Part shown: piece by piece, positions 2,612 to 63,121 of the stretch
How positions within the stretch are numbered: the first letter of the stretch is position 1
How the letters are laid out: every line of letters begins with the position of its first letter
Assembly: GCA_030920305.1 (NCBI GenBank)
Contig: JARLUB010000002.1
Coordinates: 1-64,000 of the forward strand
Reading direction: 5' to 3'
DNA length: 64,000 nucleotides
Source: Eubacteriales bacterium SKADARSKE-1
Lineage (GTDB): Bacteria; Bacillota; Clostridia; Oscillospirales; Acutalibacteraceae
Made by a program: the position numbers and the translations under genes
The notes under the pieces: model-generated
Database searches by the model: none
What the model was told of the DNA's origin: nothing
The model's input: the letters and a program-made list of their open reading frames with translations, nothing else

Positions 2612-2617
2612 AATACT

Positions 2618-2868: not shown

Positions 2869-2890
2869 TAATAATAAATTTTTATTTTCC

Positions 2891-2916: not shown

Positions 2917-3138
2917 GGTTTTTCGGGTTTAAACATCGGGAAGATAAATAATTTTTTTGGTAAATTAAGTATATTTTGTCGGAAAGGTAGAATTTTTCTT
3001 ATCCTCTTGCTTTTAGAAACTGTAAAATGATACTATTAACCCACGGAAAATTTTCCCTGTGAGCAAATAAAAAGGTATGTTAAATCTTACACAATTATAT
3101 TTTTATCTATAAATTTAATTTCGAAGGAGTTTGTAAAA

Positions 3139-4095: not shown

Positions 4096-4104
4096 AGGAG
4101 GAAG

Positions 4105-8307: not shown

Positions 8308-8384
8308 AGAATAATTTGTTATTGAAAATAAAGGTAACAGATGTTACAATGTTATCTATAACATATTTTAAGAAGGTGAAAACA

Positions 8385-10264: not shown

Positions 10265-10621
10265 CTAACTTTTATCTCCAGGTTTTGAAACTAAGGCAGC
10301 AATGTATCCAAAAAATACTGCTGCTGCAATTCCAGCAGAACTTGCAGAAATGCCACCAGTTAAAATGCCCATAAGCCCTTTATCTTTTACAAATTCCATT
10401 GTTCCTTTTGCCATGGTATAACCAAAACCTGTTAGAGGAACTGTTGCGCCAGCACCAGCAAACTCTACTATTGGTTCATAAATTCCAATGGCTGTTAAAA
10501 TAACTCCAAGTGTTACAAATAATACCAATATGCGAGCTGGAGTTAATTTTGTACGGTCTATTAAAACCTGACCTATAACACATATTATCCCACCAACAAC
10601 AAAAGCTTTTAAATATTCCAT
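10265..10621 (-). CDS. spoVAE: stage V sporulation protein AE
   Basis: A 118-residue integral membrane protein of the SpoVA complex, which moves dipicolinic acid across the inner forespore membrane. Motifs seen: AFVVGGIICVIGQVLID, LTPARILVLFV, then GAGATVPLTGFG, GLMGILTGG and FFGYIAAL, spanning most of the length. ATG 10621 is chosen because AAAGGGTTGG precedes it; an ATG six codons earlier is possible. It lies upstream of the spoVT fragment on the same strand. spoVAC and spoVAD are not next to it; spoVAD is at 46471. Confidence 0.93.
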   Translation of the reverse strand: MEYLKAFVVGGIICVIGQVLIDRTKLTPARILVLFVTLGVILTAIGIYEPIVEFAGAGATVPLTGFGYTMAKGTMEFVKDKGLMGILTGGISASSAGIAAAVFFGYIAALVSKPGDKS

Positions 10622-10833
10622 AAAAACCAACCCTTTCATAAATTATTATTCCTAAAAAAATTTGCTTTTATGTACTATTTATTGAAATTATATTTACAAT
10701 TTTTATGTATTTAATGAGCCTTTTTATAAAATTTAATTTTAAAACAGGGAAGCAAGGATTGAAGAAATATTAACAAATATAAATTTTATTGTAAAAATCA
10801 AGTACATGGAAAAATGATTTTTAAAATAAAGTA

Positions 10834-12780: not shown

Positions 12781-14592
12781 TTGAATTATAAAAAAACAGT
12801 AAAAAGTGTCATGGCATCTGCATGCATTCTTTCACTTTCAGCAGGGCCGTTGGCATATTCCAATCAAGCACATGCATCCTTTTTGACAGGTTGGCTAAGT
12901 TCACATAGCCAAGAGCAAATAGATACCGTTAAGCGTGAGGATTTATCTTTGCTAGATGAATGCTCTGAAAAGGCTAAAAAAATTAATTCTGTGGAACAAG
13001 CAAAAAAATTTTTAGATGAGGTTTTGAAACTTAATGGCAAGGTGGAGAAGAACTCTAGTGATTATAGTGAATTAGAGTCTATTTCTAAAAAAGTGAAAGA
13101 ACTTTTAAAACAAATTAATTTAGAACTTGATTTACAATCAATAGTAGATAGGCAAAAATTAGAAGAGCAAAAACTTGCAAAAGATAATTTAGAAAAGGCT
13201 CAACAGCTTGAACAAGAAAGACTAGAGAGAGAAGTCAAGGAAAAAATTAATAGTGCAAAATCTGCTCTAAATGAAAGAATAGATTCTTTATTGCGTGATC
13301 TAAAAGAAAAACAAAAAATAGAGAGTACTTCTGAAATTGACAGAATTTATATTGAATCAGATAAAATACGTGATAAAATAGATGGCATGACAACTTTAGA
13401 TAGAACTGAAAGTTTAAAAATGCTAATAAATGAATTGCAAGATGATATAAACAAAGTTTCTGCTGCTGAAGCTAAAGCTAAAAGGGAAGCTTTTGAAAAT
13501 TTATTGAAAGAAACGAAAAATAATTTTACAGCGGCAATTGAAAATTTATCAGTTGAGTTTAATGCAGTTGATCTAGGAGATGGTCCTTATGATGAAATTC
13601 AAAATTCCATTAAAGAATTAAAAACCATGGTTTCTACTTTTTCTGATATGAATTCATCAAATAAAATAGAAGAGAATATAAATTCAATTGGTTTAAAAAT
13701 AAAAAAATCTATTGATGATCAGAAAAAATCAGAAGAGGAAAAGCTAGAACGTGCCGAGCGAAGAGCTAATATAGAAAACAACCGTAATTTTGATAAACAG
13801 TTAGAATTATTATCAGAAGGCAAGATTTCAATAAAGGATGTAATCGGTGGAAATCAAAAGGCAATAGATAAGGTAAATTCTTTGTTTAAGGCATTTGAAA
13901 AGTATAGAGAAGGCGGTAAAATAAAACCGTCATCTAAAGGTGTATTATTCTATGGACAACCAGGAACCGGTAAAACCACTCTAGCCAAAGCTTTTGCTGC
14001 TGAAAAAGGTGTAGAATGCATAATGCTTACTCCATCAATGGTTATGGAAGCTGATGGAGCACAAAAAATGTTACAGATAATTGAGCTTGCAAAAAAATCT
14101 GCCAAAATTACCGGAAAACTAGTTGTATTACTTATAGATGAAATAGATGCAATTGGACAAAAACGCTCAAGCAGTGGTAGTGATAAAGTTTTGGTATCTT
14201 TAATGAACTCTTTAGATTTACTTAGTCCAGAAGATGGAGTAATTGTACTTGCTACAACTAATCGTAGAGAAGCTATCGATGCAGCTTTAGTTAGATCAGG
14301 TAGACTTGATCAAAGTGTTGAGGTTAGCTATCCAAACCAAGAGGGTATATTGGAAATTCTTAAAATTCGTTTAAGATATCTCCAGTTGGATCCAAGTATA
14401 AAACTAGAAGGATTTTCTAGCAGAATGAAAAAATTCAATGGTGCAGATATTGGAAAAGTTGTAGATTTGGCATTAGGGAATGCAATGGAACGTAATAAAG
14501 TTACCGAATTGTCAGATGCTGTTATCTTAAACTCGGATTTAGAATATGGTATAGCAACAGTCACAGATGAAAAATCTGATTCACTCATTTAA
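12781..14592 (+). CDS. AAA+ ATPase with a Sec signal peptide and long coiled coil
   Basis: A 603-residue protein, TTG start behind AAGGAGG. Residues 1-32 form a typical signal peptide: basic NYKKTVKS, hydrophobic core, AHA just before position 33. Residues about 45-360 are charged and heptad-like (coiled coil). The C-terminal third is an AAA+ module of the FtsH/proteasomal ATPase type: Walker A GQPGTGKTT (392-400), Walker B LLIDEID (451-457), sensor-1 ATTN and arginine fingers RSGR (505-508). All key residues are present and no protease domain follows. An ATPase made for export is very unusual because ATP is normally absent outside. If the leader stays uncleaved, it would instead be an anchor. 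Single gene, with a terminator after it. Confidence 0.88.
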   Translation: MNYKKTVKSVMASACILSLSAGPLAYSNQAHASFLTGWLSSHSQEQIDTVKREDLSLLDECSEKAKKINSVEQAKKFLDEVLKLNGKVEKNSSDYSELESISKKVKELLKQINLELDLQSIVDRQKLEEQKLAKDNLEKAQQLEQERLEREVKEKINSAKSALNERIDSLLRDLKEKQKIESTSEIDRIYIESDKIRDKIDGMTTLDRTESLKMLINELQDDINKVSAAEAKAKREAFENLLKETKNNFTAAIENLSVEFNAVDLGDGPYDEIQNSIKELKTMVSTFSDMNSSNKIEENINSIGLKIKKSIDDQKKSEEEKLERAERRANIENNRNFDKQLELLSEGKISIKDVIGGNQKAIDKVNSLFKAFEKYREGGKIKPSSKGVLFYGQPGTGKTTLAKAFAAEKGVECIMLTPSMVMEADGAQKMLQIIELAKKSAKITGKLVVLLIDEIDAIGQKRSSSGSDKVLVSLMNSLDLLSPEDGVIVLATTNRREAIDAALVRSGRLDQSVEVSYPNQEGILEILKIRLRYLQLDPSIKLEGFSSRMKKFNGADIGKVVDLALGNAMERNKVTELSDAVILNSDLEYGIATVTDEKSDSLI

Positions 14593-19421: not shown

Positions 19422-19433
19422 TGACACCTCCAC

Positions 19434-22185: not shown

Positions 22186-23382
22186 ATGAGCTACTTAAAT
22201 AAAAAAACAGTTTCAGATATAAATGTTTCCGAAAAAACAGTTTTTATTCGGTGTGATTTTAATGTTCCTTTTGATGAGTTTGGCAATATAGCAGATACAA
22301 AACGTATTGATGAGTCTTTAACGACAATAAAATATTTGTTAAAACAAAATGCTAAGGTAATACTTTGTTCACATTTGGGTAGACCAAAAGGTGAATTTAA
22401 TAAAAAATATTCACTTCAGCCAGTTGCAAAATATCTTTCCAAAGTCTTAGGGCAAGAAGTGAAGATGGCAAATGATGTTATAGGGGTAAGTGCAAAAAGT
22501 TTAGCGGCCTCTTTGAAAAATGGAGAAATTTTGTTACTTGAAAATGTTAGATTTTCTCCCGAAGAAGAAAAAAATTCTCCTGAATTTGCAAAAGAACTGG
22601 CGTCACTTGCAGAAATTTATGTAAATGATGCTTTTGGGACAGCACATAGAAAGCATGCTTCAACAGTAGGTATAGCTTCTTATTTACCTGCAGTTAGCGG
22701 ATTTTTAATAGATAAAGAATTAAAAGTGATGGGCAAGGCGCTAACTGATCCTAAGCGGCCTTTTGTGGCAATATTGGGAGGAGCAAAGGTATCAGATAAA
22801 ATAGGTGTTATAAATAACCTTTTACAAAAAGTGGATACACTCATTATTGGTGGGGGTATGGCATATACTTTTATGAATGCCTTAGGTTATTCTATTGGTG
22901 AATCAATTTGTGAAGTTGATAAAATAACTTTAGCAAGAGATATTATGGTAAAAGCAAAAGAACAAGATGTTAAATTTTTAGTTCCAGTTGATAACAAAGT
23001 GGGTATAGAGTATAAATCCGATACGGAATATAAAGTAGTTGAGTCTGACAGTATTCCTGAAGGATGGATGGGACTTGATATTGGTCCGAAAACTGAAAAA
23101 TTGTTTGCTCAAGCATTGGAAGGGGCAGGGACGATCGTTTGGAATGGACCTATGGGTGTCTCTGAATGGGAAAATTTTGCAAGTGGAACATTAGCTGTTG
23201 CCAAAGCAGTGGCTGAAAGTGGTGCTATTTCTATTGTTGGAGGGGGAGACTCTGCTGCAGCTGTTGAAAAATTAGGTTACTCTGATAAAATGACTCACAT
23301 ATCCACCGGTGGGGGAGCCTCATTAATGTTTTTAGAAGGCAAAGAACTTCCAGGAATAGCTGTATTAGAAGACAAAGATTAA
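22186..23382 (+). CDS. pgk: phosphoglycerate kinase
   Basis: A 398-residue enzyme transferring phosphate from 1,3-bisphosphoglycerate to ADP in glycolysis. [73 protein letters not shown] and [18 protein letters not shown] are all in their usual order. RBS GAGAGG, ATG. It heads a pgk-tpiA-gpmI run; gap is not in the window. Confidence 0.98.
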
Positions 23383-23447
23383 GCTAATTATTACCTAAGT
23401 AGCGCAAGACATAATTTGGTCTATTTGCAACTAAAGGAGAAATTTCT

Positions 23448-24215
23448 ATGAACAAGCTTCTTAGAACCCCTGTGATAGCTGGAAATTGGAAAATGAATAA
23501 AAATTGTGAAGAAACAAAAAATTTAATTGAAGAGATTACTCCTCTTGTAAAAAAAGCTAATTGCAAAATAGTATTGTGTGTGCCATATACTGATTTGTTG
23601 CCGGCTTTAAGTGTAGCAGCTAACACTAATATAAAAATTGGTGCGCAAAATTGTCATTTTGAAGATCATGGAGCCTTTACCGGAGAAATTTCAGCAAAGA
23701 TGCTAAGTTCAATGGGAGTAGAATATGTTGTAATTGGGCATAGTGAGAGAAGAATGTATTTTTCTGAAACGGATATTACAGTAAATAAAAAAATAAAAGC
23801 TGCAATAAAAGAGAAGCTCAATGTAATATTGTGTGTTGGAGAATCCTTAGAACAGCGAGAACAGAACATTACTTTTGAGGTGATATCTACCCAGCTTAAA
23901 ATTGCATTTAAAGATATTATTAATGAAGATTTAGAAAAAATAATAGTAGCCTATGAGCCTATTTGGGCAATAGGAACTGGTAAAACAGCAACTTCTGAGC
24001 AAGCTGAGGAAGTTTGCTATTTTATTCGCGAAATTATAAAACAGCTGTATGATAAAAAAGGTGCAGATTCTATGAGCATTCTTTATGGTGGCTCAATGAA
24101 TGCTAAAAATGCAAAGGAACTTTTATTGCAGAATAATATTGATGGTGGGCTAATTGGTGGGGCATCACTTAAATCTGCTGATTTTTCAGAAATTGTTAAA
24201 GAAGCTGATGCATAA
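23448..24215 (+). CDS. tpiA: triosephosphate isomerase
   Basis: A 255-residue TIM barrel interconverting dihydroxyacetone phosphate and glyceraldehyde 3-phosphate. Catalytic Lys in GNWKMNK, His in VIGHSERR, Glu in AYEPIWAIGTGKTA, phosphate loop YGGSMNAKNA and GGLIGGASL. RBS AAAGGAGA, 65 bases after pgk. Confidence 0.98.
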   Translation: MNKLLRTPVIAGNWKMNKNCEETKNLIEEITPLVKKANCKIVLCVPYTDLLPALSVAANTNIKIGAQNCHFEDHGAFTGEISAKMLSSMGVEYVVIGHSERRMYFSETDITVNKKIKAAIKEKLNVILCVGESLEQREQNITFEVISTQLKIAFKDIINEDLEKIIVAYEPIWAIGTGKTATSEQAEEVCYFIREIIKQLYDKKGADSMSILYGGSMNAKNAKELLLQNNIDGGLIGGASLKSADFSEIVKEADA

Positions 24216-24306
24216 GGCAATTAAGCTATGGTGACTTGTTTTTTGCTTTTATAAGTGCTCTTAATATTTTGGTAGTTTATAAAGACTAAAGGGGATGTAG
24301 CAAAAT

Positions 24307-25824
24307 ATGAGGAAACCATTAATTTTAATTATTTTAGATGGATATGGAATAGGCCCAAAACATGACAACGCTATTGCTGCTGCGAAAAAACCTAATCTTG
24401 ATAAACTTTTTAATAATAATCCAGTCACTCAAATTTTAGCTTCCGGCATGGCGGTAGGACTTCCTGATGGCCAAATGGGCAACAGTGAAGTTGGCCACAC
24501 AAATATTGGTGCGGGAAGAGTTGTTTATCAAGATCTTACTAGAATTAGCAAGGCCATCGAAGACAAAATTTTTTTTGAAAATAAAGAGCTTTTGGGGGCT
24601 ATTGAAAATGCAAAGAAAAAAAGAACAAAACTTCATTTAATAGGGCTTTTATCAGATGGAGGAGTACATAGCCATAATAGCCACTTGTATGCTTTGCTTA
24701 AACTTGCTAAGAAAAGTGAGCTTGAAAATGTATATGTGCACGCTTTTTTAGATGGTAGGGATACTTTGCCAACATCTGGGAAAGGTTTTATTTTAGATTG
24801 CGAAGAAAAGATGAGAGAAATTGGCGTAGGAAAAATCGCTACTGTTTCTGGTCGGTATTATGCTATGGATAGAGATAATCGATGGGACAGGGTTGAAAAG
24901 GTTTATTCCAATATGGTTTACGGTGAAGGTATATTTTGTGGTGACCCAAAAGAAGTTATAGAAAGATCATATGAAACTGGAATTACGGATGAATTTGTAG
25001 TTCCAACGGTTTGTGATAAAAGTGGTTTAATTTGCGAAAACGATTCCGTTATATTTTTTAATTTTCGCCCCGATAGAGCACGAGAGATTACTCGGGCATT
25101 TGTTGATGATAACTTTGACAAATTTAAAAGAGAAAAAGGGTTCTTTAAAACTTTTTTTGTATGCATGACTCAGTATGAGATCACCATGCCAAATTCATAT
25201 GTGGCCTTTTCACCGCAATCTTTAAAAAATACATTCTCTGAGTATATTTCAAAGTTAGGCATGACACAATTAAAAATAGCTGAAACGGAAAAATATGCTC
25301 ACGTTACGTTCTTTTTTAATGGTGGAATTGAAAAAGCATATCCTGGTGAAGATAGAGTCCTTATTCCATCACCTAAGGTTGCAACTTATGACTTAAAACC
25401 AGAAATGAGTGCTTTTAAGATAGCAAAAACAGCGGTAGAAAAAGTAAGGTCAGGAAAATACGATGTAGTGGTTATAAATTTTGCCAACTGTGATATGGTA
25501 GGGCATACCGGTGTATTTGAAGCTACAGTTAAGGCCGTTCAAGCAGTAGATACTTGCGTTGGCGAAGTTGTAAAGGCAGTATGCGATATGTCAGGCTATT
25601 TAATTGTTACGGCCGATCACGGTAATGCTGAAAAAATGCGAGATGAAACTGGCAAAGTTTTTACAGCGCACACCACCAACCCTGTGCCATTTTGTGTTGT
25701 GTGTTATCCATGCAAATTTAAAAAAAGTGGCAGGCTTTCTGATATTGCTCCTACTATGCTTGATATTTTAAATATAGAAAAACCCAAAGAAATGACAGGA
25801 AAAAGTTTAATTGAACATGATTAA
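24307..25824 (+). CDS. gpmI: 2,3-bisphosphoglycerate-independent phosphoglycerate mutase
   Basis: A 505-residue manganese enzyme converting 3- to 2-phosphoglycerate. Metal and phospho-enzyme motifs: ILDGYGIG, GNSEVGHTNIGAG with the nucleophile Ser, LLSDGGVHSH, HAFLDGRDT, RYYAMDRDNRW, FFNFRPDRAR, NCDMVGHTG, TADHGNAEKM. Third gene of the glycolytic run. The pH-sensitive Mn-dependent type is the one used by spore formers, where it lets 3-PGA accumulate in spores. Confidence 0.98.
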   Translation: MRKPLILIILDGYGIGPKHDNAIAAAKKPNLDKLFNNNPVTQILASGMAVGLPDGQMGNSEVGHTNIGAGRVVYQDLTRISKAIEDKIFFENKELLGAIENAKKKRTKLHLIGLLSDGGVHSHNSHLYALLKLAKKSELENVYVHAFLDGRDTLPTSGKGFILDCEEKMREIGVGKIATVSGRYYAMDRDNRWDRVEKVYSNMVYGEGIFCGDPKEVIERSYETGITDEFVVPTVCDKSGLICENDSVIFFNFRPDRAREITRAFVDDNFDKFKREKGFFKTFFVCMTQYEITMPNSYVAFSPQSLKNTFSEYISKLGMTQLKIAETEKYAHVTFFFNGGIEKAYPGEDRVLIPSPKVATYDLKPEMSAFKIAKTAVEKVRSGKYDVVVINFANCDMVGHTGVFEATVKAVQAVDTCVGEVVKAVCDMSGYLIVTADHGNAEKMRDETGKVFTAHTTNPVPFCVVCYPCKFKKSGRLSDIAPTMLDILNIEKPKEMTGKSLIEHD

Positions 25825-35622: not shown

Positions 35623-37101
35623 CTATAGAATTATACATACAAGGCCATTACAACCTTCATTTATGATTTTTTCTATTGTTTCGGCAACTTTAGTTCTTGC
35701 ATCTGTTGGCATTCGATAAAGCTTGTTGTGAAGACCTTCATTTACTAATTCATGCAAAGACTTTCCTAAGATGTTTGAGTCCCAGATTTTGCTAGGGTTT
35801 TCTTCAAACTCTTTTAATAAGTAATTTACAAGCTCTTCGGATTGTTGCTCAGAACCTACTATAGGGGTAACTTCTGTAGCTATGTTGGTTTTTAGCATAT
35901 GTATAGAAGGGGCAGTAGCTCTGAGGCGAATACCATATTTTCCACCTTGTTTTATTATTTCGGGTTCTTCAAGTGTAAGTTCATCAGTAGATGGCATAAC
36001 TATTCCATATCCTGTTTCTGAAACATCTTCATAGGCTGAGCTTATCTTATCATATCTTTCTTTTATTTTTGAAAGCTCTAAAATAGAATCTAGTAACATT
36101 CCTTCATTTGTAATATCAAGATTAGTTTTTTCACTTAGGACTTTATAAAACAAACTGTCTTTAAGGTTTAGCAGTATCCTAGTTGTACCTACACCTAAAT
36201 CTATGGAAGTAGCTTGAGCTTTATTTACGTGTTCACATGAGAGAACTCCATCAATTATAGATTGAACTTCTCTTATTTTTTCTATACTTTTTGCTGATTC
36301 TTTTATTGTGCGGTAAATAGATGATCGAAGCCAATGGTCTTTTTCAAGGGAAGTAAGCCATCTTGGCATATCAATTTTTACTTCTTTTATTGGGAATTCA
36401 AATAAAATACCGGCTAAAATTCTTTTTATTTCATCTACAGATAATTCAAGACAGTTTACAGGGATTACAGCTACTTGATGTTTTTTATTCAATTCTTTGG
36501 CTAATGTTTGAGTAGAATTAGAGGTAGGGTAAGCACTGTTTAAAAGGATAATAAATGGTTTATTAATTCCCCTTAATTCATCAATAACTCTTTCCTCTGC
36601 TTCCTCATATTCTTCTCTAGGAATATCATTTATGCTGCCGTCAGTTGTTATTACAAGTCCTATGGTAGAATGATCGGTTATTACTTTTTTAGTGCCAAGT
36701 TCAGCTGCCATATTAAAAGGAATGGGCTCATCATACCATGGAGTCATAACCATTCGGGGCTGTTCATCTTCAATATAACCTAAAGCACTAGGGACTATAT
36801 AGCCTACACAATCTATTAGTCGAACTTTAAAATTAGCAGCAGAATTGATATTTACGTCAACTGCAGTTTCAGGAATGAATTTAGGCTCGGTTGTCATTAT
36901 AGTTCGGCCAGCTGCAGATTGTGGCATTTCATCGGTTGCTCTATCTCTTTTAAAGTTTGTATCCATGTTTGGTATAACAAGAGTTTCCATAAATCGTTTT
37001 ATAAACGTTGATTTTCCGGATCGAACAGGCCCGACAACGCCAATATATATATCTCCGCCTGTTCTTCTTGCTATATCTTTATAAATATTTCTCTCCTCCA
37101 A
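35623..37101 (-). CDS. spoIVA: stage IV sporulation protein A
   Basis: A 492-residue ATPase that polymerises on the forespore to form the coat basement. N-terminal P-loop GPVRSGKSTFIKRF, RATDEMPQSAAGRTIMTTEP, LIDCVGYIVP, then the long middle and C-terminal domains ending NEGCNGLVCIIL. TTG start; AAGGAGG lies 11 bases before it. Length is normal. It lies 51 bases after the SPOCS/LysM gene on the same strand. Confidence 0.97.
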   Translation of the reverse strand: MEERNIYKDIARRTGGDIYIGVVGPVRSGKSTFIKRFMETLVIPNMDTNFKRDRATDEMPQSAAGRTIMTTEPKFIPETAVDVNINSAANFKVRLIDCVGYIVPSALGYIEDEQPRMVMTPWYDEPIPFNMAAELGTKKVITDHSTIGLVITTDGSINDIPREEYEEAEERVIDELRGINKPFIILLNSAYPTSNSTQTLAKELNKKHQVAVIPVNCLELSVDEIKRILAGILFEFPIKEVKIDMPRWLTSLEKDHWLRSSIYRTIKESAKSIEKIREVQSIIDGVLSCEHVNKAQATSIDLGVGTTRILLNLKDSLFYKVLSEKTNLDITNEGMLLDSILELSKIKERYDKISSAYEDVSETGYGIVMPSTDELTLEEPEIIKQGGKYGIRLRATAPSIHMLKTNIATEVTPIVGSEQQSEELVNYLLKEFEENPSKIWDSNILGKSLHELVNEGLHNKLYRMPTDARTKVAETIEKIINEGCNGLVCIIL

Positions 37102-46470: not shown

Positions 46471-47481
46471 ATGGCTAAAAGAGTTGGAAGATATACAATT
46501 CAGATGGAAAAAATGCCATCCATTAATGGATTTGCAGCAGTTTGTGGTAAAAAAGAGGCAGAAGGACCGCTTGGTCAATATTTTGATTATACGTTTGATG
46601 ATACAACTTTGGGCGAAGATTCCTGGGAAAAAGCAGAAAGTCAGCTTCAGACTGAAAGCGTAAACAAAGCTTTAGAAAAAGCAGGAATTATTGCCTCAGA
46701 GGTTGATTATATTTTTGCAGGAGACCTTTTAAACCAATGCATTTCTTCAACATTTGGGCTTAGAAGTTTAGACATACCTTTTCTTGGACAATATGGAGCA
46801 TGCTCTACGATGGCTCAGACTTTAGCCCTTTCTTCAATTATGGTTGAAACAGGAGTGGCAAATAACTGTATAGCAGTTACATCATCACACTTTTGTTCAG
46901 CCGAACGGCAATTTAGATTTCCCCTAGAATATGGTGGTCAAAGGACTCCAACGGCTCAATGGACTGTTACTGGGTCAGGTGCAATTGTAGTTGGCAGTGG
47001 AAAAGGACCATTTGTTTCGGCAGTTACCATAGGCAGGATGATTGATCTTGGAATAAAGGACGCTAACAATATGGGTGCTGCAATGGCACCGGCTGCAGCT
47101 TCTACTTTGATGGATTTTTTTAATGATACATCAACTGGTCCTGAAAATTATGACCTTATTTTAACTGGTGATTTAGGAGAAGTTGGTAGCAAATTATTAT
47201 TAGAATTATTAGAAAGAGAAAACATAGATATTGCAGGTAAGCATTCTGATTGCGGCCTTTTAATATACCATCAAAAGGAACAGGATGTTCATGCAGGTGG
47301 TTCTGGCTGTGGTTGTTCAGCTTCAGTTTTATGCTCTGTTATATTAAATAAATTAAGACAAGGGGAATTGGAGAATGTGTTGTTTATGGCAACAGGAGCT
47401 TTAATGTCACCTACTTCATCGCAGCAAGGAGAAAGTATACCATCAGTTGCCCACCTTATTTATTTAAAACGTAATATGTAG
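46471..47481 (+). CDS. spoVAD: stage V sporulation protein AD
   Basis: A 336-residue thiolase-fold protein of the SpoVA dipicolinate channel; it binds dipicolinic acid. YGACSTMAQTLALSSIMVETG, TSSHFCSAERQFRFPLEYGGQRTPTAQWTVTGSGA (adjoining parts), ILTGDLGEVG and HAGGSGCGCSASV are typical. It stands alone with its own RBS (TGAGGAAT) and terminator, without spoVAC and spoVAE, which are usually adjacent; spoVAE is at 10265. Confidence 0.96.
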   Translation: MAKRVGRYTIQMEKMPSINGFAAVCGKKEAEGPLGQYFDYTFDDTTLGEDSWEKAESQLQTESVNKALEKAGIIASEVDYIFAGDLLNQCISSTFGLRSLDIPFLGQYGACSTMAQTLALSSIMVETGVANNCIAVTSSHFCSAERQFRFPLEYGGQRTPTAQWTVTGSGAIVVGSGKGPFVSAVTIGRMIDLGIKDANNMGAAMAPAAASTLMDFFNDTSTGPENYDLILTGDLGEVGSKLLLELLERENIDIAGKHSDCGLLIYHQKEQDVHAGGSGCGCSASVLCSVILNKLRQGELENVLFMATGALMSPTSSQQGESIPSVAHLIYLKRNM

Positions 47482-48862: not shown

Positions 48863-49897
48863 ATGAATAAACTTTCTAAATTTCTTTTATTTTGTTTCAC
48901 TATGGTTTTTATGGCTTTTGGTAGTATCAAATTAAATGTTTTAGCATTCGAAGGGGAGCTTTTGACACCCTCTGCTTTAAAAGCTGGAGATACTATATGC
49001 ATTTTAGAGCCATCAAGAACAACGGTCTCTCGTAAAGATATACTACAAGAAAGGATTCCTTATGTAATAAAAAAACTAGAAGAACGGGGTTTTAAGGTAA
49101 TTGTCGCAAATGAAAGTTTTAAACCCACAGAATTAGAACTTGGCGATGGCACAGAACAAATAAGAGCAGATGCTTTTAATAATGCAGTTAGAAAGCCTGA
49201 AGTTAAGGCTATATTTGCCTTTTGGGGTGGGTATGGTGCTATGCACATTTTAGACAAAATAGACTACGAAGCCTTTAGAAAAAATAAGCCTATATTTGTA
49301 GGATTTAGTGACGAAACTGCTTTATTAATTCCAATTTTTGAAAAGGCTGGGGTTGTAAGTTTTCATGGCCCAATGGTGGGTGCTTCATTTAACTGTCAAG
49401 AAACTAAAACATTTGACTGTTTATTTGATATGTTAATGAATCCTAAAGATTTAACTGAGCTTAAAAATATTGATGATGATTCGCCTTTTAAAGTGTATAA
49501 AGATGGAACCTGTGAGGGCAATATCATTGGAGGCAATCTATGTTTGACTCAATGCTTAATGGGTACACCATATCAAATTGATTTTAAAGATAAAATTTTA
49601 TTCTTTGAAGAAGTAGAAGAAAGTGCTTACAGGTTACATCGTTTACTTTGGCAGCTTAAATTATCAGGTAATTTAGAAAAGCTTTCAGGAATAGTAGTAG
49701 GTACTTTGACACCAGTCAAAGGGGAATCGGAACAAAAACTATTAAATGCAGCGTTTGATGTACTTAAGGAATTAAATATCCCAATAATTTATAATATACA
49801 TGCGGGACACTTGAAAAATCCTTTAACTATTCCAGTTGGTGCAAAGGCGAAAATTGAAGGAAATAAATTATTTATTACTCAACAGGTTGTAGAATAG
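48863..49897 (+). CDS. S66-family LD-carboxypeptidase with a signal peptide
   Basis: A 344-residue peptidase that removes the terminal D-Ala (or Dap-linked residue) from muropeptides, or a MccF-like peptidase. Motifs: LKAGDTICILEPS, FWGGYGAMHILDKIDYE, VGFSDETAL with the nucleophile Ser, ILFFEEVEES, then NIHAGHLKNPLTIPVG with the catalytic His. Residues 1-28 are a clear signal peptide (VLA before F29). S66 enzymes are usually cytoplasmic, so export is odd and places wall-peptide trimming outside the cell. ATG behind TGGAGG; terminator after it. Confidence 0.88.
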   Translation: MNKLSKFLLFCFTMVFMAFGSIKLNVLAFEGELLTPSALKAGDTICILEPSRTTVSRKDILQERIPYVIKKLEERGFKVIVANESFKPTELELGDGTEQIRADAFNNAVRKPEVKAIFAFWGGYGAMHILDKIDYEAFRKNKPIFVGFSDETALLIPIFEKAGVVSFHGPMVGASFNCQETKTFDCLFDMLMNPKDLTELKNIDDDSPFKVYKDGTCEGNIIGGNLCLTQCLMGTPYQIDFKDKILFFEEVEESAYRLHRLLWQLKLSGNLEKLSGIVVGTLTPVKGESEQKLLNAAFDVLKELNIPIIYNIHAGHLKNPLTIPVGAKAKIEGNKLFITQQVVE

Positions 49898-50077: not shown

Positions 50078-50110
50078 AAAAAGCCACCGGAATAACCGGT
50101 GGCTTTTTTA
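50078..50110 (-). terminator. terminator of the ATP/ADP translocase gene
   Basis: AAAAAGCCACCGG pairs with CCGGTGGCTTTTT around AATAA, directly after the translocase stop (minus strand). Confidence 0.9.
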
Positions 50111-50116
50111 TTAAAA

Positions 50117-51655
50117 TTAATTTTCAGTTACTGCAACTTTTTCATCATTTTCATTCATTTCCTCTACAGCCTTTTCATACTTCGGGCTGAGACGGAATAC
50201 GGAGGCAATCCAAGCAATAACTGTTACTACAAATATAGCAACGATTGTTACTACGTGATTCATAAGGCCAGGAATGATACCAAACATAATTTGTTGAATA
50301 AGAGAAGCACCAGCTTTACCGGCACGTCCGCCAATGACTTCAACGGCGGCTTGTCCCTTGGTTTTAGTGTCTTCGTCAAGTGGAATATATGCCATGCTCT
50401 TTGTTGAATCAAACAAGCAATACTTAACACTTTTAACCATAGCATCTTGTATAATTCCAAACCAAATTGCAAGTGTGAGAGCAGAAAAACCAAAGAATGT
50501 TGGACTTACAAATTTATTATAAAGTGTAAGAGCAAAGAAAATTGTTCCGAGAATTAAAAATATAGCAGGAGTTACAGCGGCAGAAATCTTCCATTTGCAA
50601 CGTCTTAAAACATTAGCTGCAAATAAAGTTATAACAATTGTAAAAACACCGGTGAATATTGACAAGTTACCCTGCATGGAGGCATATTCAGTTTTATCGA
50701 AAGCTGCCTTCATTTGAGTTTTTAAAACAACTTCAGCAAAATTGACAGCAATACCATAACCCATAACTAAAACAGCAACTAAAAGCAAGTAAGTGTTGGT
50801 AAATAGGAATTTGATTCCATCCATAACGCTGACTTTTTCTTTTGATTTTTTCTTCTTTTCTTTAATTTGAGACGGATCAAACAAACTTGCATCCGTTAAG
50901 ACTTTCTTATTAATATAAGCGTAAGTAGCTAAAACGAAAGCACCACAAAGCAAAACAGATAGCATTAGTATCATAACATTATGAATAGAATAATCTTTTA
51001 AGGCATTTTTGATGGTTACACCGGCAATAACAACACCTGCGTTTCCAATTAATGAAAACAAACCAAAAAATCTTTTGGTTTCATCTTTCATTGTGGTAGC
51101 ATTTGCAAACTGCCAAAACAAAGAAGATATAGCCATTGTTCCCCAAATTTCAGAGAAAATATAAAATAAAGTTATTGGCCAATTGCCAGCACAAGTAACT
51201 AAAGTTTTAAAAAAACCTGGAACTCCAGCAACCATGCTAGTAATTTGTTCTGAAGACATCATTAAATGGTCAAGGTTTGGATACAAAAAAAATCCAAATA
51301 AAGCATAAAAGACCATAAACGAAGATACTATTATATAAAACGTTTTTTTGGAACCAAATTTATTCATTAAAACAGTAAATAGCATAACGGCTAAGAACGC
51401 AAATGGCAAAACATACCAAAGTTTAAGTGCACTTATAAGTTGAGATGAAGCAGAGCTATCGGGAACGCCATCTTTTAACCAAACATGAGTTTGATATTGA
51501 ACAAATACATCTTTAAGGTCACGAACTAAAGTGTAAACAAAAAGAATAAAAAATAGCAGAAAGCTCATGGGTAAAAATTTCCTAAGCTCAAACTTATGAA
51601 TAGGAAAAACGATAGCCTGAAATTTGCTAAACTCTTTAGGCTTGGTTGTGGTCAT
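50117..51655 (-). CDS. ATP/ADP translocase (NTT/Tlc nucleotide transporter)
   Basis: A 512-residue membrane protein with about 12 helices of the NTT family, which exchanges host ATP for bacterial ADP, or imports nucleotides. Diagnostic stretches: FPIHKFELRKFLPMSFLLFF, LRDLKDVFV, FWQFANATTMKDETKRFFGLFSLIGN (two parts), NKKVLTDASLFDP, KYCLFDSTKSMAYIPLD, KGQAAVEVIGGRAGKAGASLIQQ (two parts). No fused CBS or HEAT domain. Known members sit in Rickettsia, Chlamydia, other intracellular bacteria and plastids, not in free-living Firmicutes. Gene layout and codon use look like the neighbours, so transfer, if any, is old. Own promoter and terminator. ATG 51655 behind GAGGAG. Confidence 0.95.
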   Translation of the reverse strand: MTTTKPKEFSKFQAIVFPIHKFELRKFLPMSFLLFFILFVYTLVRDLKDVFVQYQTHVWLKDGVPDSSASSQLISALKLWYVLPFAFLAVMLFTVLMNKFGSKKTFYIIVSSFMVFYALFGFFLYPNLDHLMMSSEQITSMVAGVPGFFKTLVTCAGNWPITLFYIFSEIWGTMAISSLFWQFANATTMKDETKRFFGLFSLIGNAGVVIAGVTIKNALKDYSIHNVMILMLSVLLCGAFVLATYAYINKKVLTDASLFDPSQIKEKKKKSKEKVSVMDGIKFLFTNTYLLLVAVLVMGYGIAVNFAEVVLKTQMKAAFDKTEYASMQGNLSIFTGVFTIVITLFAANVLRRCKWKISAAVTPAIFLILGTIFFALTLYNKFVSPTFFGFSALTLAIWFGIIQDAMVKSVKYCLFDSTKSMAYIPLDEDTKTKGQAAVEVIGGRAGKAGASLIQQIMFGIIPGLMNHVVTIVAIFVVTVIAWIASVFRLSPKYEKAVEEMNENDEKVAVTEN

Positions 51656-51847
51656 TTTTACATTCTCCTCGATAAAAATTTAAAACTTTTTCTGATCGCG
51701 ACTAATTAAGAGCTGTAAGTCAAAAATGTATGCCAATTGCTTTTCTGAAAAAAACAATTATTCTCCAGGTGAAAAAGTCTAAGTCCTCCCTTTTGCAATA
51801 CTAAGTTTCGACAACATTTTCTTAATCGCTTAAACAGAAACAGAGTT

Positions 51848-51876
51848 ATTATACCAGAAAAAAATCTTTTTTACAA
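51848..51876 (-). promoter_or_regulatory. promoter of the ATP/ADP translocase gene
   Basis: On the minus strand TTGTAA (51876-51871), 17 bases, TATAAT (51853-51848). This leaves a leader of about 185 bases before the ATG. Confidence 0.7.
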
Positions 51877-51910
51877 GTGTTTTTCTGGTTTATGTAAAAA
51901 ATTTATAAAG

Positions 51911-51940
51911 TTGACAATAGATTTTATGCTATAATATAAT
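51911..51940 (+). promoter_or_regulatory. promoter of the TSCPD gene
   Basis: TTGACA (51911-51916), 18 bases, TATAAT (51935-51940), divergent from the translocase promoter. Confidence 0.7.
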
Positions 51941-51974
51941 TTAAAGTAGTTTAAATTATTATGGAGGTTTTTTT

Positions 51975-52223
51975 ATGCAATATTCTTATAAAACGCAAGG
52001 AACCTGTTCTAAAGAAATTATAATTAAAACTGATGGAGATAAAATACAGGGGGTTGAATTTGTAGGTGGTTGCAGTGGAAACACTCAGGCAATTTCATCC
52101 TTGGTTAATGGTATGAAAATAAAGGATGTAATAGAAAAATGTAAAAATATTGATTGTGGAGGAAGAGGGACTTCTTGCCCAGATCAACTAGCTAAGGCAC
52201 TTGAGGAGATAACAAATAAGTAA
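51975..52223 (+). CDS. TSCPD-domain protein (TIGR03905 type)
   Basis: An 82-residue protein with the TSCPD motif (GGRGTSCPDQLAKAL) and GGCSGNTQAISSLVNGM, found alone in many anaerobes and as a C-terminal part of class II ribonucleotide reductase. Possibly metal binding. RBS GGAGG; 50 bases before rimP. Confidence 0.9.
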   Translation: MQYSYKTQGTCSKEIIIKTDGDKIQGVEFVGGCSGNTQAISSLVNGMKIKDVIEKCKNIDCGGRGTSCPDQLAKALEEITNK

Positions 52224-52273
52224 TAAAGTGGCATGATGCCGCTTTTTTGTTATGGTAAAGAGGAGAATAAATA

Positions 52274-52750
52274 ATGAAAAAAAGTAATACAGTGTCTCAA
52301 GTTGAAAGTTTAGCCATAAAATTAGCAGGTGATTTAGGACTTTCTATTTGGGATGTAAAATTTTTAAAGGAGGGGTCATCTTGGTATCTTAGGATATTTA
52401 TAGACAGGCCAAATGGTGTTACAATAGATGACTGTGAAAAAATGAGTCGAGCAATAGACTCACCACTAGATCAATTGGACACAATATCAATTCCATATTG
52501 TTTAGAAGTTTGCTCGCCAGGAATAGAAAGGGAGCTTACTAAAAAAGAACACTTTGAAAAATGTTCCGGGAAAAATATTATTATTCACCTAATAAGACCT
52601 CAAAGCGATGGACAAAAAGATATAAAAGGTATACTTTTAAGTTTTTGTGATGATATAATTGAAATTGCAAAAGATGATGGATTAAAAATTGGAATAAATA
52701 AAAAAGATACGGCGTGGGTTAAATTATATGATTTTTCGCAGGGTATTTAA
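52274..52750 (+). CDS. rimP: ribosome maturation factor RimP
   Basis: A 158-residue factor for 30S assembly. WDVKFLKEGSSWYLRIFIDRPNGVTIDDCEKMSRAI in adjoining parts, YCLEVCSPGIERELTKKEHFEKCSGK. RBS AGGAG. In most Firmicutes nusA follows; here a dnaC/dnaI homologue follows instead. Confidence 0.94.
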   Translation: MKKSNTVSQVESLAIKLAGDLGLSIWDVKFLKEGSSWYLRIFIDRPNGVTIDDCEKMSRAIDSPLDQLDTISIPYCLEVCSPGIERELTKKEHFEKCSGKNIIIHLIRPQSDGQKDIKGILLSFCDDIIEIAKDDGLKIGINKKDTAWVKLYDFSQGI

Positions 52751-58777: not shown

Positions 58778-60685
58778 ATGCACTTAAAAAATGATGTAAA
58801 TTTAGATTTATTTTTTTCTGGAAAAAACTATAAGGCATATGAATATTTTGGTGCACACAATATATGTGTAAAGGGACAAGCATGTACAGTTTTTAGATTA
58901 TGGGCAAAAAATGCTAAGTTTGTTTCGGTGGTGGGTGACTTTAATTCTTGGAACACTTCACAAAACCCTATGACGAAAATTAATAAGGATGGGATTTGGG
59001 AGTGCTTTGTTACACCAGCATTAAAAGAATTTTCTGCATATAAATTTAGCATAACAGGACCAGATGGAAAAACTGTTTTAAAAATAGATCCATATGCTTA
59101 TCATTTTGAGATGCGTCCTGGAACCGCTTCTAAAATTTTTGATATAGATAAATATAAGTGGAATGATTCAAGCTGGATAAAAAATAAGATTAATCAAGGA
59201 GTTTTAAATATTCCAGTAAATGTTTATGAAGTGCACTTAGGTTCTTGGAAAAGATATAAGAATGGAAGTACATTTTCCTATAAAACTTTGGCAGAAGAAC
59301 TTATACCATATGTTAAAGAGATGGGATATACACATATAGAATTAATGCCAATAACAGAATATCCATACGATGCGTCATGGGGGTATCAGGTCCTAGGGTA
59401 TTTTGCGCCAACTTCACGTTTTGGAACGCCAACTGATTTTATGTTTTTTGTGGACAAGTGCCATCAAGAAAATGTTGGCGTAATTATAGATTGGGTGCCG
59501 GCACATTTTCCGAAGGATATCCATGGCTTAGCTAAGTTTGATGGTACCCCAAGTTATGAATATTCAGACACTAGAAAAGGTGAGCATAAAGATTGGGGTA
59601 CCTTAATCTTTGATTATGAGAAGAACGAAGTTGTAAGCTTTTTAATTTCAAATGCTATGTTTTGGCTTGACAAATATCACATAGATGGCATAAGAGCTGA
59701 TGCAGTAGCGTCTATGTTGTATCTTGATTATAGTAGAAAACGAGGAGAATGGCTTCCCAATAAATTTGGTGGAAATGAAAATTTAGAAGCTGTTGAATTT
59801 TTGAAAAAGCTTAATCAAGCAATATTTTTTGAGTTTCCTAACACCATGATGATAGCCGAAGAATCTACAGCTTGGCCAATGGTTTCGAGGCCAACTGAAA
59901 GTGGGGGTCTTGGGTTTAATTATAAATGGAATATGGGCTGGATGAATGATACGCTAAGGTATATTTCAACAGATCCCTATTTTAGGCCAGATAACCATAA
60001 AGATATAACTTTTTCATTTGATTATGCCCTTTCGGAAAATTTTATACTTCCAATATCACATGACGAAGTAGTATATGGAAAAGGCTCTTTAATAAACAAA
60101 ATGCATGGCGAGTACGAGATGAAGTTTTCAGGAGTTAGGGCTTTCATAGCGTATATGATGGCACATCCGGGTAAAAAACTAATTTTTATGGGTACTGAAT
60201 TTGGACAATTTAAAGAATGGAATTTTGAGGCCGAATTAGACTGGTTACTTCTTGATTTTCCTAAACATAGACAATTACATGATTTTTTTAAATCAATAAA
60301 TTATTTTTATATAAAAACACCGCAACTTTGGGAAAAAGATTTTTCCTGTGAAGGGTTTTCTTGGATTGCCAATGATGATTATCGAAAAAGTATAATAAGC
60401 TTTAGGCGAATAGATAAAAAAGGTGAGGAATTAATAGCCGTATGTAACTTTCAACCCATGGGGAGAGAAAGCTATAGTGTAGGGGTTCCAAATGAAGGAA
60501 CCTATACTGAAGTGTTTACAACAGATGCTGTAGAGTGGGGTGGGCATGGCTTAGTTAATGGGAAGGTCCAGTCACAAAAAATTTCTATGCATGGTTTTGA
60601 GAATTCAATTTTATTAAAAATAGCTCCTTTGTCTGTAAGTTTTTTTATAAAAGAGCACATAAGTTTGAACAAGAAAGTGAAATGA
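58778..60685 (+). CDS. glgB: 1,4-alpha-glucan branching enzyme
   Basis: A 635-residue GH13 enzyme that adds alpha-1,6 branches to glycogen. CBM48 domain (VVGDFNSWNTSQNPM), then (beta/alpha)8 barrel with DWVPAHFPKD, DGIRADAVASMLYLDY (catalytic Asp), MIAEESTAWP (catalytic Glu) and SHDEVVYGKGSL (transition-state Asp). RBS AAAGGAG. First of glgB-glgC-glgD-glgA. Confidence 0.97.
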   Translation: MHLKNDVNLDLFFSGKNYKAYEYFGAHNICVKGQACTVFRLWAKNAKFVSVVGDFNSWNTSQNPMTKINKDGIWECFVTPALKEFSAYKFSITGPDGKTVLKIDPYAYHFEMRPGTASKIFDIDKYKWNDSSWIKNKINQGVLNIPVNVYEVHLGSWKRYKNGSTFSYKTLAEELIPYVKEMGYTHIELMPITEYPYDASWGYQVLGYFAPTSRFGTPTDFMFFVDKCHQENVGVIIDWVPAHFPKDIHGLAKFDGTPSYEYSDTRKGEHKDWGTLIFDYEKNEVVSFLISNAMFWLDKYHIDGIRADAVASMLYLDYSRKRGEWLPNKFGGNENLEAVEFLKKLNQAIFFEFPNTMMIAEESTAWPMVSRPTESGGLGFNYKWNMGWMNDTLRYISTDPYFRPDNHKDITFSFDYALSENFILPISHDEVVYGKGSLINKMHGEYEMKFSGVRAFIAYMMAHPGKKLIFMGTEFGQFKEWNFEAELDWLLLDFPKHRQLHDFFKSINYFYIKTPQLWEKDFSCEGFSWIANDDYRKSIISFRRIDKKGEELIAVCNFQPMGRESYSVGVPNEGTYTEVFTTDAVEWGGHGLVNGKVQSQKISMHGFENSILLKIAPLSVSFFIKEHISLNKKVK

Positions 60686-60789
60686 ATCACTGTTTTTTGA
60701 TAGTTACTAAGACTATTAATTAAGAGGATGTAGCGGAAGGTGGTTCATTATTACTCATAAATTAATATAGGAGGAGGGGCAAGAACTGT

Positions 60790-62001
60790 ATGTATCCGAA
60801 ACAAAGCGTGGTTGCGATGTTGTTAGCAGGAGGTCAGGGGAGTCGGCTTGGAGTTCTTACAAAAAAACTTGCCAAGCCAGCTATACCATATGGCGGGAGG
60901 TATAGAATAATAGATTTTCCATTATCAAACTGTGTAAATTCAGGAATAGAGGCAGTTGGGGTATTAACTCAATATCAACCTTTAGTCCTTAATGAATATA
61001 TAGGAAATGGGCAGCCATGGGATTTAGATTTAATGAATGGTGGTGTGCAGGTTTTGCCGCCTTATCAAAGAAATCGTGGTGCAGACTGGTATAAGGGAAC
61101 TGCAAATGCAATATATCAAAATATAGATTATATAGAGAGATATAACCCTGATTTTGTTGTTATATTGTCAGGAGATCATATATACAAAATGGACTATTCT
61201 AAGATGGTTGCATTTCACAAAGAAAATAATGCATCATGTACTATAGCGGCTATAAATGTGCCAATAAATGAAGCTTCGCGTTATGGTATATTAAACACAA
61301 ATCCAGATGGCTCAATTTATGAGTTTGAAGAAAAGCCTAAAAAACCTAAAAGTACAAAAGCTTCTATGGGAATTTATGTGTTTACTTGGCCCAAACTTTT
61401 AAAGTACTTAAAAAAAAATGAAGAGGACCCAAAATCCAGTAAAGATTTTGGGAAAAATATTTTACCATCAATGTTAAAGTCTGGAGAAAAACTTTTTGCA
61501 TATGATTTTAAAGGTTATTGGAAAGATGTTGGAACGATTGAAAGCCTTTGGGGATCAAATATGGATTTATTAAACCCTAATGTAGAGCTAAATCTAAGTG
61601 ACGAATCATGGAAAATATATTCTAGAAATCCAGTTTTACCTCCGCACTATATTGCAAAAGGCGCAAGGGTTCAAAATTCTTTAATATCTGATGGTTGCAA
61701 CATACATGGAGAAATAGACTTTTCTGTGTTGTTCCCAGGAGTGCAGGTAGGCCACAAAGCGATTATTAAAGATTCTATTATTATGCCTGGTACAATAATA
61801 GGTGATGGGGCTAAAGTTCAATATACAGTGATCTCAGAAGGTGCTGTTATAGGTGACAATGCTGTTATTGGAGCTAGGCCAGAGGAAATGTTAAATAAAA
61901 AAGATTGGGGAATAACAGTTATTGGAGATAATATAAGTATAAGTGCGAACACCATAGTTAAGCCAAAATCAATGGTGGAGCATAATATATTTGGAGGATG
62001 A
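60790..62001 (+). CDS. glgC: glucose-1-phosphate adenylyltransferase
   Basis: A 403-residue catalytic subunit making ADP-glucose. Substrate loop [26 protein letters not shown] in parts, [50 protein letters not shown]-terminal left-handed beta-helix (hexapeptide repeats). It lies 104 bases after glgB. Confidence 0.97.
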
Positions 62002-62005
62002 TGGG

Positions 62006-63121
62006 ATGAGGGGAAATAGTGTTCTAGGGGTTATTTTTTCAAATGTTGGAGATGATTTAATAAGAGAATTTACAGATAAAAGGGCATTTGGGTCTGTTCC
62101 TTTTGGTGGAAGGTATAGAATGATAGATTTTCCTCTTTCCAATATGGTCAACTCTGGTATAAATAAAGTTGCTGTTATTACAAAAAGAAATTATGGATCG
62201 CTAATGGATCATTTAGGTTCAGGAAAGTCTTGGGATCTATCAAGGCGCAGAGATGGACTTTCTGTGTTTCCACCGTTTGGAAGCAATAAAGGTGATTTTA
62301 ATAATAGAATGGAAATGATCTATTCTATAGCAAAGTTTATTAAAGATTCAAATAAAGAATATGTCCTTTTATCTGATTGTGATGTGGTTTGTAGCATTAA
62401 TTACGCAGATGTATTAAATACGCATATACAAAATGAGGCTGATATAACTTTAGTGTACAAAAGAGGAGTTTTCCCCCAAAAAGCGACGAGAATGATGGTG
62501 TTTTCCCTTGAGCATGATGGCAGGATACGACAAATTAGAATAGACCCAAAGTTGAAAGGAGAATGTAATTTTGGCATTAACATGACAATTATTAAAAAAC
62601 AGCTTTTACTGGATTTAGTATATGGGTGCATTAGCAACAGTAAAATTGATTTTGATAAAGATATTCTTCAAAAAAATGTAACAAAATGTAGAGTTTATAG
62701 CTACGAGTGCACGGGGTTTAATCAAGTAATAACTTCTATGGATTCTTATTTTGAAGCTAATATGAAAATAATAGATAAAGAATCAAGGAATGAGTTATTT
62801 CATAGCAAAGCTCCTATATATACAAAAATTCGTGACGATATGCCAGCTCATTATGGACTTAGTGCAAATGTAAAAAATTCTTTAGTGGGAAATGGCTGCA
62901 GAATTGATGGTGAAGTAGAAAGCAGTATTATCTTTAAGGGAGTTAAAATTGGACGAGGTTCTAAGGTTTCGAACTGTGTGATAATGCAGGACACAATTAT
63001 AGGGAGAAATTGCAATTTAAATTATATTATTACTGATAAAGATGTTACAGTAAAAGACGAACGAGTTTTAATGGGGTTTAGATCTTATCCTGTATACATA
63101 AGAAAGTCTAGCTTAGTATAA
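62006..63121 (+). CDS. glgD: GlgD, regulatory paralogue of ADP-glucose pyrophosphorylase
   Basis: A 371-residue homologue of GlgC without its catalytic N-terminal loop: GVIFSNVGDDLIREFTDKRAFGSVPFGGRYRMIDFPLSNMVNSGI in parts; the Gly-rich GGxGxRL loop is missing. Forms GlgC-GlgD hetero-oligomers in Firmicutes. ATG 62006 lies eight bases after GGAGG, five bases after the glgC stop. Confidence 0.95.
   Translation: MRGNSVLGVIFSNVGDDLIREFTDKRAFGSVPFGGRYRMIDFPLSNMVNSGINKVAVITKRNYGSLMDHLGSGKSWDLSRRRDGLSVFPPFGSNKGDFNNRMEMIYSIAKFIKDSNKEYVLLSDCDVVCSINYADVLNTHIQNEADITLVYKRGVFPQKATRMMVFSLEHDGRIRQIRIDPKLKGECNFGINMTIIKKQLLLDLVYGCISNSKIDFDKDILQKNVTKCRVYSYECTGFNQVITSMDSYFEANMKIIDKESRNELFHSKAPIYTKIRDDMPAHYGLSANVKNSLVGNGCRIDGEVESSIIFKGVKIGRGSKVSNCVIMQDTIIGRNCNLNYIITDKDVTVKDERVLMGFRSYPVYIRKSSLV

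What the first reader, a model, noticed from the sequence alone, without database searches (positions are those of the whole stretch)
50117..51655. Rickettsia/Chlamydia-type ATP/ADP translocase in a spore-forming Gram-positive
The protein carries the signature stretches of NTT/Tlc transporters (FWQFANATT, NKKVLTDASLFDP, AYIPLD, GQAAVEVIGGRAGK). Characterised members occur in obligate intracellular bacteria and plastids, where they take ATP from the host cell or stroma. A Clostridia-type chromosome with sporulation genes is not where the family is expected. It implies an intracellular energy-parasitic or symbiotic stage. The gene has its own promoter and terminator and is flanked by core genes, so it is settled in the genome.
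Basis: partly seen in the sequence, partly recalled or inferred. Interest (0 to 1): 0.92.

Follow-up and report, generated by a model that had tools for sequence, protein, structure and literature searches.

The report
ATP-type nucleotide transporter in reduced Clostridia
A bacterium with sporulation genes and a shrunken genome carries a gene of the kind used to take ATP from a host cell; the gene is real, but a group of Clostridia with it was already proposed in 2023 to be energy parasites, and the unusual point is that this member still seems able to make its own ATP.

Summary
Window 50117-51655, on the minus strand, encodes a full-length 512-aa NTT/Tlc transporter (Pfam TLC 440.8 bits; its two solved relatives are ADP,ATP carriers). 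Four charged residues needed in NTT1 are conserved. The contig is 289,673 bases long, so a chimera is very unlikely.

The surprise does not hold. Takahashi et al. 2023 (PMC10579323) described a 'small genome clade' of Clostridia with this gene, small genomes and endospores. The window's genome (1.38 Mb, 98% complete) fits: full-length TLC occurs in 22 of 399 sampled genomes of its family and 1 of 398 across the phylum (itself). 21 of 22 tested rows with any TLC match, plus one TLC-free genome, form one RpoB clade (100/100). Identity with the published clade is inferred; none of its named genomes was compared.

Less ordinary: this genome has all seven glycolytic enzymes looked for. Enolase with pyruvate kinase is found in only 3 of 23 full-length TLC genomes, itself included; PurH is missing in 22 of 23, itself included. 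So loss of ATP generation does not fit this member. A probably exported Cdc48-type ATPase in the window supports life inside a host cell.

The parts
50117..51655 (-). NTT/Tlc-type nucleotide transporter gene (tlc), 512 aa
   Evidence: K78, E169, E308, K447 align with AtNTT1 K155, E245, E385, K527 (K155, E245, K527 documented, E385 recalled)
50078..50108 (-). intrinsic terminator of tlc, 13-pair hairpin with an A/T base
   Evidence: sequence; fold -22.1 kcal/mol, z -6.07
51848..51876 (-). candidate tlc promoter TTGTAA-17-TATAAT with TG before the -10, about 190 bases upstream of the ATG
   Evidence: number of promoter-like sites not above shuffles
51975..52223 (+). TSCPD-domain gene (TIGR03905) divergent from tlc
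52274..52750 (+). rimP (ribosome maturation factor)
48863..49897 (+). LD-carboxypeptidase (S66), convergent with tlc
22186..25824 (+). glycolysis cluster pgk-tpiA-gpmI
   Evidence: PGK; TPI and GpmI
58778..63121 (+). glycogen synthesis glgB-glgC-glgD
35623..37101 (-). spoIVA, sporulation
46471..47481 (+). spoVAD, sporulation
10265..10639 (-). spoVAE, sporulation
12781..14592 (+). protein with signal-peptide-like N-terminus and a Cdc48-type AAA ATPase domain, candidate exported protein
   Evidence: signal peptide judged by eye

Best explanation
The gene encodes an NTT-family transporter in the plasma membrane that exchanges external ATP for internal ADP (probably with phosphate), as its two closest solved relatives do. 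The organism is a reduced-genome member, with sporulation genes, of the clade of Clostridia that Takahashi et al. called the small genome clade, most likely living part of its life inside a eukaryotic cell such as a gut protist. Because this member keeps every glycolytic enzyme looked for, the carrier most likely supplements ATP inside the host rather than replacing all ATP production. Shown: family, full length, conserved charged residues, clade-restricted distribution in the samples, reduced genome, presence and absence of the tested genes. Inferred: substrate, direction, host, intracellular location, identity with the published clade.
For: Pfam TLC 440.8 bits over the whole model. The only two solved relatives at E <= 0.001 are 9j3n and 9j3j, ADP,ATP carrier proteins, E 4.3e-94 and 7.7e-80 over nearly the whole protein; 36.2% and 34.4% identity. 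Four charged residues kept in the window protein; the K155 and K527 columns are the same in 31 of 31 rows, E245 and E385 in 30 of 31; K155, E245, K527 roles from PMC3306366 passages. Full-length TLC in 22 of 399 family genomes, any TLC in 1 of 398 of a phylum sample. RpoB: 21 of the 22 rows with any TLC match that were put in, plus TLC-free G016, form a 100/100 clade. Genome 1,383,341 bases, 98.32% complete; window G+C 32.6%. PurH absent in 22 of 23 full-length TLC genomes, this one included, present in 10 of 12 others. Ras-like matches above 60 bits in 5 of 25 genomes with any TLC match and 0 of 10 without. Takahashi 2023 (text parts 1-5 of 7 read): small genomes, low G+C, this gene, and endospores in protist endosymbionts.
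Against: No transport assay. TIGR00769 is under its cut-off. Enolase and pyruvate kinase are retained, so dependence on host ATP is not forced. G000 itself has no strong Ras-like match (best 29.8 bits; 13 of 14 ordinary control genomes also give some match). One TLC-free genome, G016, lies inside the clade and one genome with a weak 24-bit TLC match, G326, lies outside. The published genomes could not be compared directly, and no call named the family as Acutalibacteraceae. Habitat unknown.
Confidence: 0.75

Rival explanations
1. The carrier imports nucleotides net (as a proton-driven NTP importer or a broad exchanger) to feed a purine auxotroph, and energy supply is secondary.
For: G000 lacks PurH, as do 22 of 23 full-length TLC genomes counting it, while it keeps the tested glycolytic enzymes. 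Characterised NTTs have diverse substrate specificities and transport modes (PMC5381601 passage).
Against: The two solved relatives are named ADP,ATP carriers and the charged residues studied in the exchanger NTT1 are all present. Strict exchange gives no net purine, so an exchanger would need another purine route beside it; purine salvage genes were not surveyed genome-wide.
Confidence: 0.3
2. A non-parasitic use in a free-living fermenter, as in other free-living NTT carriers.
For: Glycolysis, glycogen-synthesis and sporulation genes are present; NTTs occur in free-living bacteria (PMC5381601, passages).
Against: In the family sample full-length TLC is confined to small genomes (0.8-1.8 Mb), those put on the RpoB tree lie in one clade, and it is absent from the other 397 genomes of the phylum sample; PurH lost; published genomes of this kind were seen inside protists.
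Confidence: 0.08
3. The contig is a chimera or contamination from an intracellular bacterium.
For: None beyond the rarity of the gene in the phylum.
Against: Contig of 289,673 bases with pyruvate kinase and a pair of ATPase subunits further along it; relatives at 63-68% identity in six other genomes of the family; gene G+C 33.8% against 32.6% for the window; contamination 0.52%.
Confidence: 0.01

Closest known systems
Clostridia ATP/ADP translocase (TlcC) of the Acutalibacteraceae small genome clade, Takahashi et al. 2023, PMC10579323
   Same: NTT gene in a reduced (0.86-1.4 Mb, one 1.9 Mb), low G+C Clostridia lineage; no de novo purine synthesis in the endosymbionts so described; Rab-like GTPases in some members; endospores seen in two of the three endosymbionts
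   Different: The three published endosymbionts lack enolase and any known net ATP generation; this genome has enolase and pyruvate kinase, five more glycolytic enzymes and glycogen-synthesis genes. Whether it is TlcC type I or II could not be told without their sequences. The paper's supplements, which cover the MAGs, were not read.
ADP,ATP carrier protein 1, PDB 9j3n (organism recalled as Chlamydia pneumoniae)
   Same: Full-length homologue, 36.2% identity, same four charged residues
   Different: Host recalled to be a Gram-negative obligate intracellular bacterium; substrate of the window protein untested
Chloroplast ADP,ATP carrier protein 1, PDB 9j3j (taken to be AtNTT1)
   Same: Full-length homologue, 34.4% identity; K155, E245, E385, K527 equivalents present, and one numbering offset of 84 fits all four
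   Different: A plastid protein of a plant
Rickettsiales NTT on a Candidatus Megaera polyxenophila plasmid (AP017965.1)
   Same: NTT family, 32.3% identity
   Different: Outside the group of the 28 Clostridia rows (100/99 branch)

Membership tests
NTT/TLC transporter family (PF03219) | Full-length profile match above the gathering score | tested here: met
   440.8 bits against 21, positions 4-491 of 491
NTT/TLC transporter family (TIGR00769) | NCBI's NTP/NDP exchange transporter cut-off | tested here: not met
   372.5 bits against 387.2, over 1-471 of 472 positions; a near miss, so 'NTP/NDP exchanger' is held as likely, not as shown
ATP/ADP exchangers of the NTT1 kind | Charged residues K155, E245, E385, K527 of AtNTT1 | tested here: met
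   K78, E169, E308, K447; K155, E245, K527 documented in PMC3306366, E385 recalled
ATP/ADP exchangers of the NTT1 kind | ATP/ADP counter-exchange activity | not testable with these tools
   needs an uptake assay
ATP/ADP exchangers of the NTT1 kind | Same fold as the solved carriers | tested here: inconclusive
   model mean pLDDT 38.7 from a 3-row alignment; sequence homology over nearly the full length stands in for it
Small genome clade of Acutalibacteraceae (Takahashi 2023) | Genome 0.86-1.4 Mb, G+C 30-39% | tested here: met
   1,383,341 bases; window G+C 32.6%; whole-genome G+C not computed
Small genome clade of Acutalibacteraceae (Takahashi 2023) | TLC-bearing genomes form one clade within one family | tested here: met
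   22-row RpoB clade at 100/100 holding 21 of the 22 rows with any TLC match plus TLC-free G016; the row outside is G326 with a 24-bit match; three full-length TLC genomes were not put in
Small genome clade of Acutalibacteraceae (Takahashi 2023) | Groups with the named published genomes | not tested
Energy parasite in the sense of the published endosymbionts | Disrupted glycolysis, no known net ATP generation | tested here: not met
   PFK, TPI, GAPDH, PGK, GpmI, enolase, PK all found; aldolase, glucose-phosphate isomerase and sugar uptake were not looked for

The most novel reading that the evidence does not exclude
This lineage records the middle of the road to energy parasitism: a bacterium with sporulation genes that has gained the ATP carrier and lost purine synthesis while glycolysis and glycogen storage still work, so that the carrier was gained first and ATP generation was lost later and several times in sister lineages. 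In the same cell a Cdc48-type ATPase is exported, which would have ATP to use only in the host's cytosol, so the bacterium both imports host ATP and drives an exported machine with it.
Probability: 0.35. Interest if true: 0.55.

Novelty: new member of a known kind. Interest (0 to 1): 0.33.

Why it matters
It adds a near-complete genome that fits a little-known clade of presumed intracellular Clostridia and shows that having the ATP carrier need not mean having lost ATP production. The clade then offers a graded series (carrier, purine loss, enolase loss, pyruvate kinase loss) in which the order of steps toward energy parasitism can be tested. Enolase absence, part of the published case for broken glycolysis, is also common in TLC-free relatives (4 of 10 controls lack it), so alone it is a weak marker of parasitism here.

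Tried and rejected
Structure prediction of the carrier from a 3-row alignment gave mean pLDDT 38.7 and was not used; no fold search was run. Rfam found no RNA element in 51600-52280 at E up to 1. No NTT in the phage collection, one in plasmids. Synteny as support for vertical inheritance: rejected; in loci of six relatives (11-21 kb each) none of 17 window neighbours of tlc is found except fhs in G069. TlcC type I versus II: not decidable without the published sequences. F-type ATP synthase: the four PF00006 matches in G000 sit in two pairs of frames of 594/465 and 596/477 aa, taken by size for V-type A and B subunits; not tested further. Ras-like proteins in G000: only weak matches. Paper searches for structure or residue work found nothing useful; led to PMC3306366 and PMC5381601. 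That the clade is in print rests; in the text read (PMC10579323 parts 1-5 of 7) I saw no member described as having intact glycolysis, but no supplement was read.

The first count of changes on the RpoB tree scored G037 as lacking genes that had not been searched in it; it was repeated without G037, and the numbers are used.

Full report
1. The observation. The window holds a complete 512-codon gene at 50117-51655 on the minus strand. Pfam's TLC model matches it end to end at 440.8 bits; the NCBIfam NTP/NDP exchange model matches at 372.5 bits, under its cut-off of 387.2. Among solved structures its only two relatives at E <= 0.001 are ADP,ATP carrier protein 1 (9j3n, E 4.3e-94) and the chloroplast ADP,ATP carrier (9j3j, E 7.7e-80). 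On a 31-row alignment the charged residues K155, E245, E385 and K527 of AtNTT1 correspond to K78, E169, E308 and K447 of the window protein; the first and last are the same in 31 of 31 rows, the other two in 30 of 31. Left out of that alignment were L016 (the same gene as L004), L005 (cut by its contig end), L025 (divergent, shorter) and L026 (no tblastn match). K155, E245 and K527 are documented as needed for binding or transport in PMC3306366 (passages); E385 is recalled. The gene ends in a strong hairpin terminator, has a ribosome-binding-site-like GAGGAGA and a candidate promoter that by count is no better than chance.

2. A chimera is very unlikely. The window is the first 64,000 bases of a 289,673-base contig of a genome of 1,383,341 bases in 23 contigs, 98.32% complete, 0.52% contaminated. 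The gene is flanked by an S66 LD-carboxypeptidase and by a TSCPD gene and rimP, then a dnaC-like gene and argS (by eye). Its G+C is 33.8% against 32.6% for the window. Six other genomes of the family have relatives 63-68% identical to it (L004/L016, L015, L018, L019, L022, L023). The surroundings are not conserved in the loci of six relatives that were examined, so gene order around it has changed within the clade.

3. Distribution. A TLC match is found in 3 of 60 nearest genomes counting the own one, in 24 of 399 genomes of the family and in 1 of 398 genomes drawn across the phylum, which is the window's own. Of the 24, two have no full-length gene: G326 (24 bits) and G090 (52.6 bits); 22 do, with genomes of 0.8-1.8 Mb. 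Nine of the 24 have more than one match, some full length, some short and divergent. On an RpoB tree of 30 genomes, 21 of the 22 rows with any TLC match plus TLC-free G016 form a clade with 100/100 support; G326 falls outside. Holding the 21 together without G016 costs 3.05 log units, p-AU 0.38, so G016 may or may not lie truly inside. G322, G346 and G413 have the full-length gene but were not put into the RpoB search (30-locus limit). In the protein tree the 28 Clostridia rows are separated from the three outside rows by a 100/99 branch, and the window protein lies in a 9-row 100/100 group with G064, G069, G139, G188, G234, G301 and further copies from G204 and G383.

4. Prior knowledge. Takahashi et al. 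2023 (PMC10579323; parts 1-5 of 7 of the text read, the part 5 end and the rest being references; supplements not read) report three endosymbionts of termite-gut protists and 23 gut MAGs forming a 'small genome clade' in GTDB Acutalibacteraceae: 0.86-1.4 Mb with one exception, G+C 30-39%, ATP/ADP translocase in all but one, endospores seen by TEM in two of the endosymbionts, eukaryotic-like proteins including Rab GTPases. Endomicrobia work (PMC11257099; [quoted passage not shown] Major et al. 2017 (PMC5381601, passages) list 1 Clostridia and 5 Bacilli sequences among their NTTs. The window's genome has the published features that I could test except the loss of glycolysis, and its 1.38 Mb lies at the upper edge of the range.

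5. What is different here. Seven glycolytic enzymes were looked for in G000 and all were found: PFK, TPI and GpmI, GAPDH, PGK, enolase and pyruvate kinase. Over the 23 genomes with a full-length TLC (22 of the family sample plus G423 behind L005), enolase is in 4, pyruvate kinase in 12, GAPDH in 17 and PurH in 1; enolase and pyruvate kinase together are in 3 (G000, G069, G234). Among the 12 others in the table (10 controls, G090, G326) the numbers are 6, 10, 12 and 10. PFK is in 21 of 23 and 12 of 12. G422, the same genome as G234 by identical coordinates, was dropped from the counts. Within the 22-row RpoB clade enolase changes at least 5 times, pyruvate kinase 3 times and PurH once; this fits repeated loss but cannot tell loss from gain. 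Enolase is also missing in 4 of the 10 TLC-free controls, so it is a poor marker of parasitism in this family. The genomes are incomplete to differing degrees, so single absences are weak; the pattern for PurH is strong.

6. How it most likely works. Residue conservation and the nearest characterised relatives point to exchange of outside ATP for inside ADP. That pays only where ATP is outside the cell, that is in a host cytosol (inference). Three further points fit: the small genome, the loss of PurH, and in the same window a protein (12781-14592) with a signal-peptide-like N-terminus and an AAA domain closest among solved proteins to Cdc48/p97 and archaeal VCP-like ATPases (185.2 and 184 bits), an enzyme that would need external ATP if exported. 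Export was judged by eye only. Strong Ras-like matches (over 60 bits), a published trait of the clade, are in 5 of 25 genomes with any TLC match and 0 of 10 without, but not in G000 (best 29.8 bits). Against strict energy parasitism stands the retained glycolysis, with glgB, glgC and glgD. I therefore favour a supplementing role in a host cell, with net purine-nucleotide import as the main alternative.

7. Verdict. The gene and its family are right; the claim of an unexpected place was right before 2023 and is not now. The value left is in the retained glycolysis and the graded series of losses across the clade.

Noticed in passing
window 12781-14592 (+): 603-aa protein, TTG start behind AAGGAGG, signal-peptide-like N-terminus, then a Cdc48/p97-type AAA domain (E 1.9e-53 to Cdc48). 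An exported AAA ATPase would be unusual and would need ATP outside the cell.
   Followed up: partly
window 1081-5856 and G000 contig C1 574-5045 (L074): A cluster of four genes for predicted secreted proteins with no Pfam match is present again at the start of contig C1 in the same order, 31-88% identical gene by gene. Both copies sit at contig ends.
   Followed up: partly
window 16050-16781 (+) and 1081-2433 (-): Two otherwise different predicted secreted proteins share an N-terminal stretch (78 aligned columns, 47% identity), as if a common export segment were reused.
   Followed up: no
L002 (G005:C7): Two strong Ras-like matches (125 and 97 bits) lie just downstream of tlc in G005, whose genome has 34 Ras matches in all.
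   Followed up: no
window 7896-7972 (+): pemK RNA motif above its gathering score (48.1 bits against 34.8), just before a serine recombinase gene at 8316-10196.
   Followed up: no
window 17487-19433 (-): Protein with a BppU_N domain, a name known to me from phage baseplate proteins; neighbours were not checked for phage genes.
   Followed up: no
L025 (G090) and further matches in G204, G338, G122, G278, G346: A second, very divergent NTT-like group in frames of 452-470 aa scoring only 50.7-64.3 bits against TLC, different from the main carriers.
   Followed up: no
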